Virus record (IMG/VR): IMGVR_UViG_3300020442_000712
Span: 1 to 43,513 of that record
DNA length: 43,513 nucleotides
Direction: 5' to 3' (one strand)
Source: a virus
The notes under the pieces were generated by a model, which saw nothing but the letters and a program-made list of their open reading frames with translations, was not told the DNA's origin and ran no database searches. The position numbers were made by a program, and so were the translations under genes. Positions 34,401 through 39,615 of this stretch are shown here, one piece after another (positions within the stretch are counted from its first letter, which is position 1; each line of letters starts with the position of its first letter).

Positions 34401-34993
34401 AAAAAGAACTATTTTCGGTTCCTATACATTATGGATTTATCTCTAGCAATGATTTTTTAAAAGAAAAATTACTTCCTAGAATAGAGTTAACCCGAGACAA
34501 AGTAGAACTCCCAGAAGATTGGGACACTAATAAATTAATCACCTCATTTAATCATAACGATTTCAATGAGATGATTTTTGATGACATAACATATTATTCT
34601 TATATGGATTGTATTAGTGATGCCTTCGGTAATACAGGGCCTACCAAGATTCAAAAATTATGGTACAATTATTATGCTGATGGTGAATTCCAAGAGATTC
34701 ATAATCACATAGGTGATATTTTTAATCCCACTCACATGTGTGGTGTTCACTTTCTTCAGTATGATAAAAGAATACATGAACCTCTAGTCTTCGAGGATCC
34801 CATGATGAAACTTAGAAGTTATGGGTGGGAAGCAGTAACTGATTATGAAGAGACATTTACTGTTGATGCTTCGGAGGGAGATGTAGTATTCTTTCCACCA
34901 TACTTAGATCACAAAGTTAAGAGCGGAAATCCTACCCCAGATTATCCTAGGATTACTGTTGCTTTTAATATACAATTCTTTGATAATGAATAA
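34397..34993 (+). CDS. 2OG-Fe(II) oxygenase-like protein (second copy)
   Basis: This 198-residue protein of the family of putative 2OG-Fe(II) oxygenases has an unusual metal motif EIHNHIGD (His102, His104 and Asp107 as candidates), a distal His172 (DHKVKSG), and Arg185 (PRITVAF) as 2-oxoglutarate anchor. The pattern H-x-H plus later H/R recurs in the gene at 40221, so those two are probably related. The start is GTG at 34397 and overlaps the regA stop as GTGA; no ATG is available upstream in frame. The substrate is unknown. The gene lies in an accessory stretch between regA and hsp20. Confidence 0.75.
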   Translation: MKKELFSVPIHYGFISSNDFLKEKLLPRIELTRDKVELPEDWDTNKLITSFNHNDFNEMIFDDITYYSYMDCISDAFGNTGPTKIQKLWYNYYADGEFQEIHNHIGDIFNPTHMCGVHFLQYDKRIHEPLVFEDPMMKLRSYGWEAVTDYEETFTVDASEGDVVFFPPYLDHKVKSGNPTPDYPRITVAFNIQFFDNE

Positions 34994-35723
34994 CAAATTT
35001 ATTTTCGATGTAGACGGTACATTGACTCCCAGTAGAAAGACCATTGATCCTAACTTCCGTAGGTTCTTTTTGGAATTCGCTGAGAGTCATATTTGTTATC
35101 TAGTCACAGGAAGTGATAGAAAGAAGACTCTTGAACAGGTTGGAGAAGAGATCTGTAATGCTTGTGTACGTGTCTATAACTGTTCTGGAACGGATGTATA
35201 TGAGGAAGATCGAAATGTTCGTAGAGTGAATTGGGACGTGCCTGATGACCTTGTAGATCACTTATACGAGGAGTTAGATCGTAGTGAGTTCCCCATTCGT
35301 AATGGATTGCACTTGGAGTACAGACCAGGTGGACTCAACTTTAGTATTCTTGGTCGTGGTTCTGGGGAAGGATGGCATCGAGATGAATATGTTAAGTGGG
35401 ACAAAAAATATAAAGAGAGAAAAAAGATTGCTTCTAGACTTAAGGAGAAGTTTTCCGACATAGAAGTTCAGGTCGGTGGACAAACTGGATTGGATCTTGC
35501 TCCTAAGGGAAATAATAAGAGCATGATACTTTCTGATTTTTCTACTTTAGATAAGTTACATTTTTTTGGTGACATGATGGACGAGGGAGAAAATGATTAT
35601 CCATTAGCCAAAGCTGTAACGGATATGGGGGGTATACCGTACCACGTAAAAAATTGGAAGGAAACCCGAACTATTTTAAAGGGTTTTCACGACCTAGATC
35701 CTGGAAGGAAGTTGTATAATTAG
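34986..35723 (+). CDS. Phosphomannomutase-like HAD protein
   Basis: This 245-residue protein matches the eukaryotic-type phosphomannomutase branch of the HAD superfamily. It has FDVDGTLTPSRKTI (nucleophile Asp7 and acid Asp9), a cap with NGLHLEYRPGGLNFSILGRG, a GGQTGLDLAPKGNNKSM segment, and the metal Asp in FFGDMMDEGENDYPLA. PMM converts mannose-6-phosphate to mannose-1-phosphate, the precursor of GDP-mannose sugars. This type is normal in eukaryotes and scattered in bacteria and phages, so lateral transfer is plausible. The start ATG 34986 overlaps the oxygenase stop by eight bases. Whether it is a mutase or only a phosphatase cannot be judged here. Confidence 0.82.
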   Translation: MNNKFIFDVDGTLTPSRKTIDPNFRRFFLEFAESHICYLVTGSDRKKTLEQVGEEICNACVRVYNCSGTDVYEEDRNVRRVNWDVPDDLVDHLYEELDRSEFPIRNGLHLEYRPGGLNFSILGRGSGEGWHRDEYVKWDKKYKERKKIASRLKEKFSDIEVQVGGQTGLDLAPKGNNKSMILSDFSTLDKLHFFGDMMDEGENDYPLAKAVTDMGGIPYHVKNWKETRTILKGFHDLDPGRKLYN

Positions 35724-35777: not shown

Positions 35778-36212
35778 ATGGGAAACCTTCAACGCTATCA
35801 GGCAGCAGATCTACCACAGTTGTTTGATCGTATCACTCGCAACGCAATCGGTATGGACGATTACTTCGACCGTATCTTTACGTTGAACGAGACACAGGCA
35901 AACTATCCACCATTCAATCTAGTGCAGATCAACAATGTTGAATCTAGACTAGAAATTGCTTTGGCTGGATTTAGAAAGGACGAAGTTAACGTCTACACTG
36001 AATTTGGGAAACTCTTTATTGAGGGACAAAAAGAGGACACAGAATCCCAAACTACCTATGCCCATCGAGGCATCGCTCAAAGATCTTTCACTAGAAGCTG
36101 GACTCTTTCTGATGATACTGAAGTTCGCTCGGTAAACTTTGAGGATGGGCTATTGACGATTGAACTTGGTAAAGTAGTTCCAGATCATCATGCAAGGAAG
36201 GACTGGTTCTAA
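35778..36212 (+). CDS. hsp20: Small heat-shock protein Hsp20
   Basis: This 144-residue protein has the alpha-crystallin domain at about 45-135: VESRLEIALAGFRKDEVNVY, LFIEGQKE, then RSFTRSWTLSDDTEVRSVNFEDGLLTIEL. Phage Hsp20 proteins of this kind are conserved in cyanomyoviruses and are thought to stabilise photosystem or phage proteins during infection. The leader (35724-35777) holds a small hairpin (ATGTC 35725-35729 with GACAT 35739-35743) and a strong ribosome site AAAAGGAG 9 bases before the ATG. The gene stands alone between PMM and a terminator. A thermosensor role for the hairpin is conceivable but unsupported. Confidence 0.92.
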   Translation: MGNLQRYQAADLPQLFDRITRNAIGMDDYFDRIFTLNETQANYPPFNLVQINNVESRLEIALAGFRKDEVNVYTEFGKLFIEGQKEDTESQTTYAHRGIAQRSFTRSWTLSDDTEVRSVNFEDGLLTIELGKVVPDHHARKDWF

Positions 36213-36236: not shown

Positions 36237-36277
36237 GGGGGTAACTGGCAAAGACCAGTTGACACCCCCCTTTTTTT
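36237..36277 (+). terminator. Intrinsic terminator after hsp20
   Basis: GGGGGT and AACTGG (36237-36248) pair with CCAGTT (36255-36260) and ACCCCC (36264-36269) around a CAAAGA loop; GAC (36261-36263) bulges. Seven T residues follow at 36271-36277. The right arm also contains the -35 box of the next promoter. Confidence 0.92.
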
Positions 36278-36287
36278 GTGCCATAAT
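36259..36287 (+). promoter_or_regulatory. Consensus sigma70 promoter inside the hsp20 terminator
   Basis: A perfect TTGACA (36259-36264) is separated by 17 bases from CATAAT (36282-36287). The transcription start would be near 36294. It is the best host-type promoter seen in the window and lies directly before the structured non-coding stretch and the Sm-like/polymerase operon. Confidence 0.75.
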
Positions 36288-36293
36288 ATATTT

Positions 36294-36513
36294 GTTGAAT
36301 CGACGGGTTCAACGGGGAGTGACTGAATAACCCTGTTGGAATTAGGCGGGGTAATGTAAATGGTTAGAGGTGGTACTCGCCTTCCCTAAAGGAAGTGAAC
36401 CCGAACCAAGGGAACCATTGTTGTTATGTACTAATTTTCGCTTTAGCGATTCCCATAACTTGAGGGTACGAAGTATTCCCTCCTCCCACCCTACACAACT
36501 ATTAAAGAGTAAG
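36294..36513 (+). ncRNA. Highly structured leader or small RNA, unassigned
   Basis: No convincing reading frame fills this stretch, but stems follow one another. First is TTCAACGGG with CCCTGTTGGAA (36308-36341). Then comes a cloverleaf-like unit closed by AATGGTT (36359-36365) and AACCATT (36413-36419), enclosing GGTG/CGCC (36369-36381), TTCC/GGAA (36382-36394) and CCC/GGG with a seven-base loop (36400-36412). Next is GTTATG/CATAAC with an inner TCGC/GCGA (36423-36459), and last GAGGGTAC with GTA-TT-CCCTC (36462-36482). A pyrimidine-rich stretch and the Sm-like gene follow. With the promoter at 36259 it could be a 5' leader with regulatory structure or a separate small RNA. Coordinates are approximate at the 3' end. 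Confidence 0.6.
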
Positions 36514-36834
36514 ATGACCATCAAATTAGTACTTCTAAAATCTAATGAAGAAGTCATTGCTGATGTAACTGAACTTGTTGACAACGACGATAAGACAAAA
36601 TATATTGTATTAGGTAATCCATACTGTTGTAAACTCGTAGAGAACCCTGAGCTTCTCACCGAGGACACTGTAGAAGGAGAGACTACATATAGTGTTCAGT
36701 ATTATCCATGGATGCCTTTGACATCCGAGAAGAGAATCCCAATCAGTCCAGACTGGGTTGTTGCCATCACTGAACCATGTGAGATGGTAATGAAATCATA
36801 CACAGACAGGATGAAAGAAAAAGAAGATGGATGA
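36514..36834 (+). CDS. Sm-like small protein, first of tandem pair
   Basis: This 106-residue protein starts at the ATG 36514 (MTIKLVLLKSNEEVIADVTE). The frame continues upstream for 48 codons, but that part lies in the structured leader. The domain has the same pattern as the proteins at 19717 and 36827: a strand ending SNEEVIADV, a C-containing loop, YYPWMPLTSEKRIPI, and a final strand VVAITEP plus a short helix. I read it as an Sm-like or similar small beta barrel, possibly RNA-binding. It overlaps the next paralogue by eight bases and is the first gene of the polymerase operon. Confidence 0.78.
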   Translation: MTIKLVLLKSNEEVIADVTELVDNDDKTKYIVLGNPYCCKLVENPELLTEDTVEGETTYSVQYYPWMPLTSEKRIPISPDWVVAITEPCEMVMKSYTDRMKEKEDG

Positions 36835-37117
36835 AACCACTAATGTACAAATCATCATTTTAAAGAATGATGAGGTTTTGATTTCTGCGATTGAAGAAGT
36901 TGGCGCTGAGATTGGTGATCCCAATTGCAAACTTACTTCTCCCTATAAAATTCTAGGTAAACATGAAACTGACAAACCTCCACATGAGAGACTTGTTCCA
37001 TGGTTATCTGACTATACTGATGACACAGAATTGATGATGTCATCTGAGAGTATTCTAACTCTCGTTGAGCCACACAAAGCACTAATTGACGCATACTTGA
37101 AACTCGCTACGACATGA
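36827..37117 (+). CDS. Sm-like small protein, second of tandem pair
   Basis: This 96-residue protein has the same layout as its upstream neighbour: VQIIILKNDEVLISAIEEV, a P-Y-K-I-L strand, RLVPWLSDYTDDTEL, and ILTLVEPHKALIDAYL. The repeated VPWL / YPWM turn and the terminal V-x-P helix suggest tandem duplication followed by divergence. Its TGA overlaps the polymerase ATG by four bases, so polymerase translation may depend on it. Confidence 0.78.
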   Translation: MDETTNVQIIILKNDEVLISAIEEVGAEIGDPNCKLTSPYKILGKHETDKPPHERLVPWLSDYTDDTELMMSSESILTLVEPHKALIDAYLKLATT

Positions 37118-39615
37118 GGTTTTACACCAACGTTTTTCAGATCGGAAACTATATTTTGGTCAGGGGATATGAGGACGGAAAACATTTCAGTGATAGGACA
37201 CAGTTCCATCCAACGTTCTATGTTCCTACAAAAAAGAAAAGTAAGTGGAAGACATTAGATAACGTTGCTGTGGAACCAGTAAAACCTGGTACGATCAAGG
37301 AGTGTAGAGAATTTATTGATAAGTATTCTCAGGTCAATGGATTTAACATCTATGGCAATGAGAGATATGTTCACCAATATATTTCTGAAAAGTATCCTGA
37401 GGATGAAATTAAATTTGATGTTAGTAAGATTGATCTAATCACTATTGACATTGAGGTATCTGCTGAGAGTGGATTCCCCGATGTCTTTAATTGTGCTGAG
37501 GAGATCCTTCTCATTACCATTCAGAATTACAATACCAAAGAAATTATTACTTGGGGAACACGGCCATATACAACTAACAATAAAAAGAATCATCGATATA
37601 TTGATTGTCATAATGAAGAAGGTCTAATCAATATTTTCCTTGAGTGGTGGGAACAACATACTCCAGAAGTTATCACTGGTTGGAACTGTGAACTGTATGA
37701 TATTCCATATCTCGTCGGCCGTGTAGATCGTCTGATGGGTGAGAAGGTTGCAAAGAAGTTCTCTCCATGGGGTATTGTTAGGAAGAATGAGTTTACTATT
37801 GCTGGTAGACAGAATATCTCTTATGAACTTGCAGGTATCTCTGTAATCGATTATCTTGATCTGTACAAGAAATCTCCCGCAACTCCTAATCAAGAGAGTT
37901 ATAAACTGGATCATATTGCCTCTCAGGAACTTGGTCAGAAGAAACTTGATCACAGTGAGTATGATACTTTCCGTGATTTCTATACCAAAAACTGGCAGAA
38001 GTTTGTAGACTATAACATCGTTGACGTGGAACTGGTTGACCGTCTTGAGGATAAACTCAAGTTGATTGATCTATGTTGCACCCGTGCATATGATGCTAAG
38101 GTTAACTTCAGTGATATTGCCTATCAAGTTCGTACTTGGGATGCTATCATTTACAACTATTTGAAGAAACAGAATATTGTTATTCCCCAGAAAGAACGCA
38201 ATCAAAAGGATGAGAAGTACGCTGGTGCATATGTAAAAGAACCTAAACCTGGTGTGTATGATTGGGTTGTGTCCTTTGACCTTAACTCACTGTACCCTCA
38301 CCTGATCATGCAATACAATATCTCACCTGAGACTCTGCTTGATAAAAAACATCCGAGTGCGACGGTAGATAAACTATTGAATCAGGACATCACATTTGAG
38401 ATGTACAAGGACTATGCAGTCTGTGCTAATGGTGCGATGTTCCGCAAGGACAAGAAAGGATTCTTGCCTGAATTGATGGAGAAGATGTACAACGAACGTG
38501 TCATCTTCAAGAAACGAATGCTGAAGGCAAAACAAGCCTATGAAAAAACTCCTACCAAAGATCTTGAGAAAGAGATTGCTAGGTGTAACAACGTTCAAAT
38601 GGCTAAGAAGATTGCTCTTAACTCTGCTTATGGTGCCATCGGTAACCAGTACTTTAGGTACTACAAACTTGCCAATGCAGAGGCAATCACTCTTTCAGGT
38701 CAAGTAAGTATTCGTTGGATTGAAAACAAAATGAATAGAAAAATGAATTCTATTCTAAAAACTGAGGATAAAGATTATGTTATTGCTTCTGATACCGATT
38801 CTATCTATTTGCATATGGGTCCTCTGGTTGAGGCTGTATACAAGGGAAGAGAGAAAACTACTGAAGGCGTTGTCGCGTTCCTTAACAAGGTGTGTGAGAA
38901 ACAACTTGAGCCTTATATTGAGAGTTCTTACCAAGAACTGGCGGACTACGTTAACGCCTACGATCAAAAAATGATCATGAAGCGAGAGAATATCGCAGAC
39001 CGTGGTATTTGGACCGCTAAGAAAAGATACATCTTGAATGTATGGGACAGTGAAGGCGTTCGTTATGAGAAAGCTAAACTGAAAATTATGGGTATTGAGG
39101 CTATCAAGACTTCTACTCCTGCTCCTTGTAGGGTCATGATTAAAGATGCACTCAAATTGATGATGACTGCTACCGAAGATGACGTTATTGATTTTATCGA
39201 GAACAGTAGAACTGAGTTTAGTAATCTCCCACCAGAAGAGATCGCTTTCCCACGCAGTGTATCTGATGTGAACAAGTGGAAGTCTAATGCGACTATGTAT
39301 GAGAAGGGTTGTCCCATTCACGTTCGTGGAGCGATTTTGTATAACCACTGGACTAAACAAAAGAAGTTGCAGAACAAATATCCTGCCATCCAGAGTGGTG
39401 AGAAAATTAAGTTCTGTTATTTGAAAACTCCTAACTGGATGCATGAGAATGTCATCTCTTTTATTGGCGACTTCCCTAAAGAACTTGACCTTGAAAAGAG
39501 TGTTGACTATGAGTTACAATTTAATAAGTCGTTCCTAGAACCTATCAAAACTATTCTGGATTGTATTGGTTGGGATATTGAACGCAAAAATACATTGGAG
39601 TCTTTCTTCTCATGA
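37114..39615 (+). CDS. 43: DNA polymerase gp43
   Basis: gp43 is the family B replicative polymerase with 3'-5' exonuclease. The exonuclease Exo I is LITIDIEVSA (residues about 108-117), and Exo II/III regions follow. Polymerase motif A is DLNSLYPHLIM (Asp389), motif B is KKIALNSAYGAIGNQY, and motif C is ASDTDSIYL (Asp560 and Asp562). Length is 833 residues (T4 about 898). The C-terminal LESFF-S tail resembles the clamp-binding end of T4-type polymerases that docks on gp45. The ATG overlaps the second Sm-like gene. No intron or intein is seen. Confidence 0.97.
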   Translation: MRFYTNVFQIGNYILVRGYEDGKHFSDRTQFHPTFYVPTKKKSKWKTLDNVAVEPVKPGTIKECREFIDKYSQVNGFNIYGNERYVHQYISEKYPEDEIKFDVSKIDLITIDIEVSAESGFPDVFNCAEEILLITIQNYNTKEIITWGTRPYTTNNKKNHRYIDCHNEEGLINIFLEWWEQHTPEVITGWNCELYDIPYLVGRVDRLMGEKVAKKFSPWGIVRKNEFTIAGRQNISYELAGISVIDYLDLYKKSPATPNQESYKLDHIASQELGQKKLDHSEYDTFRDFYTKNWQKFVDYNIVDVELVDRLEDKLKLIDLCCTRAYDAKVNFSDIAYQVRTWDAIIYNYLKKQNIVIPQKERNQKDEKYAGAYVKEPKPGVYDWVVSFDLNSLYPHLIMQYNISPETLLDKKHPSATVDKLLNQDITFEMYKDYAVCANGAMFRKDKKGFLPELMEKMYNERVIFKKRMLKAKQAYEKTPTKDLEKEIARCNNVQMAKKIALNSAYGAIGNQYFRYYKLANAEAITLSGQVSIRWIENKMNRKMNSILKTEDKDYVIASDTDSIYLHMGPLVEAVYKGREKTTEGVVAFLNKVCEKQLEPYIESSYQELADYVNAYDQKMIMKRENIADRGIWTAKKRYILNVWDSEGVRYEKAKLKIMGIEAIKTSTPAPCRVMIKDALKLMMTATEDDVIDFIENSRTEFSNLPPEEIAFPRSVSDVNKWKSNATMYEKGCPIHVRGAILYNHWTKQKKLQNKYPAIQSGEKIKFCYLKTPNWMHENVISFIGDFPKELDLEKSVDYELQFNKSFLEPIKTILDCIGWDIERKNTLESFFS

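What the first reader, a model, noticed from the sequence alone, without database searches (positions are those of the whole stretch)
36259..36513. Promoter-driven, densely folded non-coding region upstream of Sm-like genes and DNA polymerase
A perfect TTGACA and a CATAAT 17 bases apart start a stretch without a credible gene. About 190 bases hold at least four nested or consecutive stems, including a three-arm unit closed by a seven-pair helix (36359-36419), a GTTATG/CATAAC hairpin with an inner TCGC stem, and a GAGGGTAC hairpin. Other intergenic gaps here are under 120 bases and weakly structured. It could be a riboswitch-like leader, a binding platform for the Sm-like proteins encoded directly downstream, or a free small RNA.
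Basis: partly seen in the sequence, partly recalled or inferred. Interest (0 to 1): 0.75.

Follow-up and report, generated by a model that had tools for sequence, protein, structure and literature searches.

The report
Cyanophage manA RNA at transcript start
The stretch is a copy of the manA RNA, a known but functionally unexplained structured RNA of viruses that infect marine cyanobacteria; a comparison of about 150 copies shows that it always starts exactly at a strong promoter or at the end of a transfer-RNA gene and sits before many unrelated genes, which suggests a self-standing RNA rather than a switch for the gene beside it.

Summary
Window 36294-36492 (+) is a full-length manA RNA (Rfam RF01745, 127.5 bits, cut-off 55.2). 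Its energy is unremarkable (z -0.65), but covariation is overwhelming. Upstream lies a terminator of hsp20 whose 3' arm contains the -35 box; the promoter puts +1 at the first hairpin.

Comparison of 152 non-redundant copies adds points that the papers I could search do not state. (1) All 152 have at the 5' boundary either a TTGACA/TATAAT promoter (142) or a tRNA 3' end (10). (2) Fifteen have a tRNA 3-18 nt downstream; some sit between tRNAs. (3) The pseudoknot, query-marked in 2010, covaries: GGGAG/CUCCC in about 210 sequences, GGGUG/CACCC in 65. (4) An unmodelled hairpin follows manA in 46 of 152 and was found only there. (5) One copy per phage genome, none in 300 host-family genomes apart from a phage-sized contig, about 40 downstream gene families. 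(6) S-SM2 has the same promoter and gene but no manA.

This argues against a riboswitch specific to the downstream gene and for an autonomous or processed phage RNA. In this window no terminator or tRNA separates it from the DUF6561/gp43 operon, so a cis role is not excluded. New member of a known kind.

The parts
35778..36212 (+). Hsp20 small heat-shock protein gene (upstream neighbour)
   Evidence: PF00011 E 1.5e-13, phrog_432 E 1.8e-55
36237..36277 (+). intrinsic terminator after hsp20: GGGGGU/ACCCCC and AACUGG/CCAGUU stems, then T7; overlaps the -35 box
   Evidence: read directly from the sequence; the same arrangement in S-SM2
36259..36264 (+). -35 box TTGACA
36282..36287 (+). -10 box CATAAT (17-nt spacer, TG extension)
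36294..36492 (+). manA RNA (RF01745); predicted transcript start at 36293-36295
   Evidence: cmscan 127.5 bits, model 1-192, E 4.8e-33, 36296-36492; own model R1 36294-36492, 154.4 bits
36294..36313 (+). P1, 5'-terminal hairpin (36294-36301/36306-36313)
   Evidence: all six counted pairs show double changes
36315..36330 (+). core GGGAGUGACUGAAUAA; GGGAG 36315-36319 is the 5' strand of the pseudoknot; A36322-C36323 pairs with G36356-U36357
36330..36352 (+). P2 hairpin (36330-36337/36345-36352)
36359..36419 (+). tRNA-like four-way junction: P3 36359-36365/36413-36419; D-like arm 36367-36378; middle arm 36381-36395; T-like arm 36400-36412
36371..36408 (+). predicted loop-loop pairing UGGU 36371-36374 with ACCA 36405-36408
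   Evidence: both motifs in 214 of 214 sequences that span both loops; invariant, so no covariation test
36423..36459 (+). P4 GUUAUG/CAUAAC with inner UCGC/GCGA
   Evidence: outer helix: all seven pairs with double changes
36462..36482 (+). P5 GAGGG/CCCUC
36483..36487 (+). CUCCC, 3' strand of the pseudoknot
   Evidence: covaries with the 5' strand
   Evidence: T4-GC 176 in S-SSM7
36827..37117 (+). second DUF6561 gene, phrog_483
37114..39615 (+). gp43 family-B DNA polymerase
   Evidence: phrog_262

Best explanation
It is a manA RNA (identity practically certain). Shown by comparison: it starts at the predicted +1 of a strong sigma-70-type promoter with its first hairpin as the 5' end; it folds into a compact body closed by a GGGAG/CUCCC pseudoknot around a tRNA-like four-way junction. 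Inferred: in phages of marine picocyanobacteria it is an autonomous RNA element with a defined 5' end, made early in infection, whose body is released by termination, by tRNA processing (RNase P/RNase Z) or by cleavage in the AU-rich stretch behind it, and which works in trans or as a stable RNA. Genes behind it, here the DUF6561 pair and gp43, share its promoter rather than being its specific targets.
For: Identity. Covariation: 91.9% of cells paired against 78.6 in shuffles and 35-47 in slid controls, 34 pairs with double changes; pseudoknot GGGAG/CUCCC or GGGUG/CACCC. 5' end: 142/152 promoter, 10/152 tRNA 3' end (with L345, L236, L420, L460 read by eye); the -10 box to P1 is 3-6 nt in 94/94 of an earlier set. 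tRNA operons: Thr-manA-Ala-Asn (L236), Asn-manA-Val (L417), Thr-manA-Asn (L446). Terminator within 95 nt in 25/152 against 2 in shuffles; P-SSM7 has promoter-manA-terminator. One copy in each of 14 complete isolate genomes. Phage-specific: 1 of 300 host-family genomes, on a 189-kb contig. Downstream genes: 42 families; at 95-99% RNA identity only a third of pairs share the gene family. S-SM2: same promoter, same genes, no manA.
Against: No transcript data. In this window, and in 81 of 152 copies, no terminator or hairpin element follows and an ORF usually starts 12-50 nt behind, so the RNA is made as a 5' leader there. Recurrent partners (gp32, DUF6561, talC: 60 of 148) could mean cis function. 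Metagenomic contigs may be chimeric at this conserved element, which would inflate the apparent switching of genes.
Confidence: 0.5

Rival explanations
1. Generic cis-acting leader: the 5'-terminal hairpin and compact fold protect early mRNAs from 5'-end-dependent decay, or act on RNA polymerase like the put RNA of phage HK022 (processive antitermination), so any gene placed behind is expressed through the terminators that often follow.
For: P1 lies at +1; half of the copies run into an ORF; terminators or the terminator-like hairpin directly follow 71 of 152; downstream genes are diverse.
Against: Copies inside tRNA operons would be cut away from what follows; S-SM2 has the same operon behind the same promoter without it; one copy per genome although many early operons could profit.
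Confidence: 0.3
2. Metabolite riboswitch in the 5' UTR, as proposed in 2010: a ligand changes the fold and thereby the expression of the next gene.
For: Complex conserved fold, 5' UTR position, some metabolic genes (talC, purS-like) downstream (PMC2864571).
Against: No common theme among about 40 gene families; a tRNA or terminator may follow directly; in the cases I read the terminator or ribosome site does not overlap the fold; no copy in hosts.
Confidence: 0.12
3. Binding platform for the Sm-like (DUF6561) proteins encoded next to it.
For: DUF6561 is the second commonest downstream family, 20 of 148.
Against: 128 of 148 copies stand before other families; S-SM2 has the genes without the RNA.
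Confidence: 0.04
4. Chance hairpins without function.
For: Folding energy within the shuffled range.
Against: Rfam match E 4.8e-33 and massive covariation.
Confidence: 0.005

Closest known systems
manA RNA motif (Rfam RF01745; Weinberg et al. 2010, PMC2864571)
   Same: Full-length match over the cut-off, all helices, pseudoknot strands, marine T4-like cyanophage, potential 5' UTR.
   Different: Belongs to a subgroup (core ...GAAUAACCC, P2 ACCCUGUU/GGCGGGGU, 127 bits against about 195 for typical copies) also found in S-SSM7, S-SSM4 and 47 IMG/VR contigs; lacks the 3' hairpin seen in 46 of 152 copies.
wcaG RNA motif (RF01761)
   Same: Also a marine cyanophage RNA and riboswitch candidate of unknown function (PMC2864571).
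   Different: Another family; no match in the window.
T4 stable RNAs C and D (species 1 and 2)
   Same: Small stable phage RNAs; rnaD begins one base behind tRNA-Arg in the T4 tRNA operon, like manA in L265 (tRNA-Arg, 0 nt).
   Different: No sequence/structure match: best manA-model score in the region 4.2 bits, E 0.38, and not on rnaC/rnaD. An analogy, not a homology.
put RNA of phage HK022 / EAR element (processive antiterminator RNAs; from memory, not tested)
   Same: Structured RNA in the transcript, followed by terminators and various genes.
   Different: No demonstrated effect on polymerase; no homology tested.

Membership tests
manA RNA RF01745 | covariance-model score over the gathering cut-off, full length | tested here: met
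   127.5 bits against 55.2, positions 1-192 of 192
manA RNA RF01745 | conserved core and pseudoknot strands | tested here: met
   GGGAGUGACUGAAUAA 36315-36330 and CUCCC 36483-36487
manA RNA RF01745 | marine or cyanophage origin | tested here: met
   IMG/VR virus record with T4-like phage genes; nearest named relatives S-SSM7, S-SSM4
manA RNA RF01745 | potential 5' UTR position | tested here: met
   RNA ends 36492, ATG at 36514, same strand, no terminator between
riboswitch | binds a ligand | not testable with these tools
   needs in-line probing or similar
riboswitch | expression platform that competes with the aptamer fold | tested here: inconclusive
   none seen by reading the window, P-SSM7 and other copies; no exhaustive search for alternative pairings was run
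riboswitch | functionally coherent set of downstream genes | tested here: not met
   about 40 families, tRNAs or terminators
free-standing small RNA gene | own promoter with +1 at the RNA's 5' end | tested here: met
   sequence level only, not mapped
free-standing small RNA gene | own 3' end (terminator or processing site) | tested here: inconclusive
   met in 25 (terminator) and 15 (tRNA) of 152 relatives; absent in this window
free-standing small RNA gene | separate transcript seen | not testable with these tools
   no RNA data held
T4 rnaC/rnaD | homologous sequence and structure | tested here: not met
   no match with the manA model, filters off

The most novel reading that the evidence does not exclude
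manA is not a riboswitch but a phage-only, tRNA-like stable RNA with exact ends, made from a dedicated promoter or cut out of tRNA precursors, that moves between genome sites and acts in trans during infection of the commonest photosynthetic cells of the sea.
Probability: 0.4. Interest if true: 0.75.

Novelty: new member of a known kind. Interest (0 to 1): 0.5.

Why it matters
manA has been an orphan riboswitch candidate since 2010 and Rfam still files it as cis-regulatory. The rule found here (5' end always at a promoter's +1 or at a tRNA end, one copy per phage, unrelated genes behind it) turns its function into a direct question: is there a discrete RNA in infected Prochlorococcus or Synechococcus cells? 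If so, phages of the ocean's main primary producers carry a tRNA-like regulatory RNA, an analogue of the T4 RNAs C and D, and annotations built on 'cis-regulatory' need correction.

Tried and rejected
Folding energy against shuffles (z -0.65; sliding windows): not informative. tRNA search: ARAGORN sees no tRNA in the window, so the cloverleaf is tRNA-like in shape only. Reading frame through the RNA (GTG 36370): rejected, since the gene starts at 36514 and relatives keep that start. Host origin: 1 of 151 genus and 1 of 300 family genomes, on a phage-sized contig. Homology with T4 rnaC/rnaD: no match. A covariation test of the UGGU/ACCA loop pairing was impossible because both are invariant. 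Gene switching on a dereplicated set (356 different against 39 same) is biased by the dereplication; the less filtered count (112 changes on 231 tips, shuffled mean 157, minimum 148) is the one I use: gene and RNA are partly linked but switch often. Literature: the few papers in the held library that name manA give no transcript data on it.

Full report
What is there. The window is a virus record of 43,513 bases with T4-like phage genes; its nearest named relatives at this element are cyanophages S-SSM7 and S-SSM4. Between hsp20 (35778-36212) and two DUF6561 genes followed by gp43 DNA polymerase lies a full-length manA RNA: 36296-36492 by Rfam (127.5 bits, cut-off 55.2, E 4.8e-33), 36294-36492 by my own model. 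The finding is therefore a member of a family described in 2010 as a riboswitch candidate (PMC2864571) and treated as cis-regulatory since (PMC9964418; Rfam update PMC7779021).

Check of the observation. The promoter hexamers, the seven-pair helix and the named hairpins are at the stated places. The -35 box is at the same time part of the 3' arm of a terminator that closes hsp20 (36237-36277, read from the sequence). Folding energy is ordinary (z -0.65), so 'densely folded' is not a valid argument; conservation is. On 42 diverse sequences the structure pairs in 91.9% of cells (shuffled 78.6, slid 35-47) with 34 pairs changed on both sides. The first alignment was built from sequences fetched by the exact core, so its core is invariant by selection; sequences fetched by another route (the 3' hairpin, or the variant GGGUG) vary.

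The pseudoknot. In 2010 it was drawn with a question mark. Sequences with GGGAG at the 5' strand have CUCCC at the 3' strand (about 210), those with GGGUG have CACCC (65); fewer than ten break the rule. This is compensatory change and settles the pseudoknot. The four-way junction 36359-36419 has the plan of a tRNA cloverleaf, with UGGU in the D-like loop and ACCA in the T-like loop in 214 of 214 sequences that span both loops; that they pair is inferred.

The 5' end. In 94 of 98 non-redundant copies a TTGACA/TATAAT promoter stands so that P1 begins 3-6 nt after the -10 box, that is at about the expected start of transcription. In the larger set of 152, 141 show it by the script, and L345 by eye; the other ten have a tRNA ending 0-2 nt before the RNA: L059, L111, L236, L265, L405, L417, L420, L435, L446, L460 (L236, L420 and L460 read from the printed sequence, L059 a tRNA-Gly-like sequence that ARAGORN does not call). 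No copy has neither. The background is 48 tRNAs in 1.11 Mb. Two quite different ways of making the same RNA 5' end suggest that the end itself is selected (inference).

The 3' side. Fifteen of 152 have a tRNA 3-18 nt behind the last strand; S-SSM7, the nearest isolate, shows this at the window's own locus. Twenty-five have a terminator within 95 nt (2 in shuffles), 46 a conserved hairpin AGACCUAAGAUGCAACU...AGUCGGGCAGAUGGUCU, 31 of these with a T run. That hairpin was found 120 times; 91 of the 93 newly fetched loci also hold manA beside it, and those without a match have the hairpin at a contig end (no Rfam match; stems with compensatory changes). It looks like an optional 3' domain of manA that the Rfam model does not contain; a 2011 note that some manA RNAs carry 'modular structures' may refer to it. 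In 81 copies, this window included, neither follows and the next ORF usually starts within 50 nt.

Genomic habit. Fourteen complete isolate genomes have exactly one copy, at different places: before purS-like (P-SSM2), gp32 (P-HM2), talC (P-RSM6, P-TIM40), behind gp23 or its equivalent (P-HM1, P-RSM4, S-SSM5, P-RSM1, MbCM1), behind pstS (P-SSM4, S-SSM4). In the environmental set 42 gene families follow it, gp32 22, DUF6561 20, transaldolase 18 (families named from their first residues and). Eight RNA sequences occur unchanged before more than one family, and at 95-99% identity only a third of pairs share the family; assembly chimeras may contribute, but the isolates show the same habit. S-SM2 has hsp20, the same terminator-promoter and the same genes without the RNA: -10 box, then GGAGG and ATG. 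Hosts lack it.

Reading. A riboswitch for the downstream gene should keep its gene and contact its control signal. This RNA keeps its own 5' end and fold, and little else. I therefore hold it most likely to be an autonomous phage RNA (0.5), with a generic cis leader or polymerase-acting RNA as the main rival (0.3). The steps not shown are transcription, release and target. For this window alone, where the mRNA follows directly, the RNA is at least also the first 200 nt of the DUF6561-gp43 transcript if that promoter is used.

Comparison. The RNA is a member of RF01745. It resembles in habit the T4 stable RNAs C and D, of which rnaD begins one base behind tRNA-Arg, but it does not match them.

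Noticed in passing
L099:4150-4190, L044:4575-4615 (-) and 118 further places: Conserved hairpin AGACCUAAGAUGCAACU...AGU(C/G)GGGCAGAUGGUCU, not in Rfam, found only directly 3' of manA (120 places; those without a manA match are at contig ends); possibly an unmodelled 3' domain of manA.
   Followed up: partly
L402:4920-5103, L438:2775-2958, L440:1002-1191, L428:10146-10325 (-), L437:4318-4496, L472:10468-10647 (-): Very diverged manA-like RNAs (27-62 bits) in virus contigs that look unlike T4-like cyanophages, without an obvious TTGACA/TATAAT promoter; L440 keeps GGGUG/CACCC.
   Followed up: partly
L158:280-473: manA RNA (152 bits) on a 188-kb contig of the flavobacterium Nonlabens xiamenensis; the size suggests a cyanophage genome in that assembly.
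   Followed up: no
window 34959-35723: HAD/phosphomannomutase-like gene (PF03332, E 4.3e-25) a few hundred bases upstream; by its first residues it looks like the family that follows manA in 7 environmental copies (not compared directly), perhaps the 'mannose' link in the name.
   Followed up: no
L054, L091, L095, L116, L249, L237 just 3' of manA: TAAATA (possible T4-like late promoter), then a short hairpin with a T run ending at the ATG of the next gene: looks like an early-transcription stop built into a late start.
   Followed up: no
L030 and L037, downstream of manA: Another TATAAT followed some 8 nt later by a hairpin GUCGCCUUCGGGGAC, i.e. a second transcript that may begin with a hairpin.
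   Followed up: no
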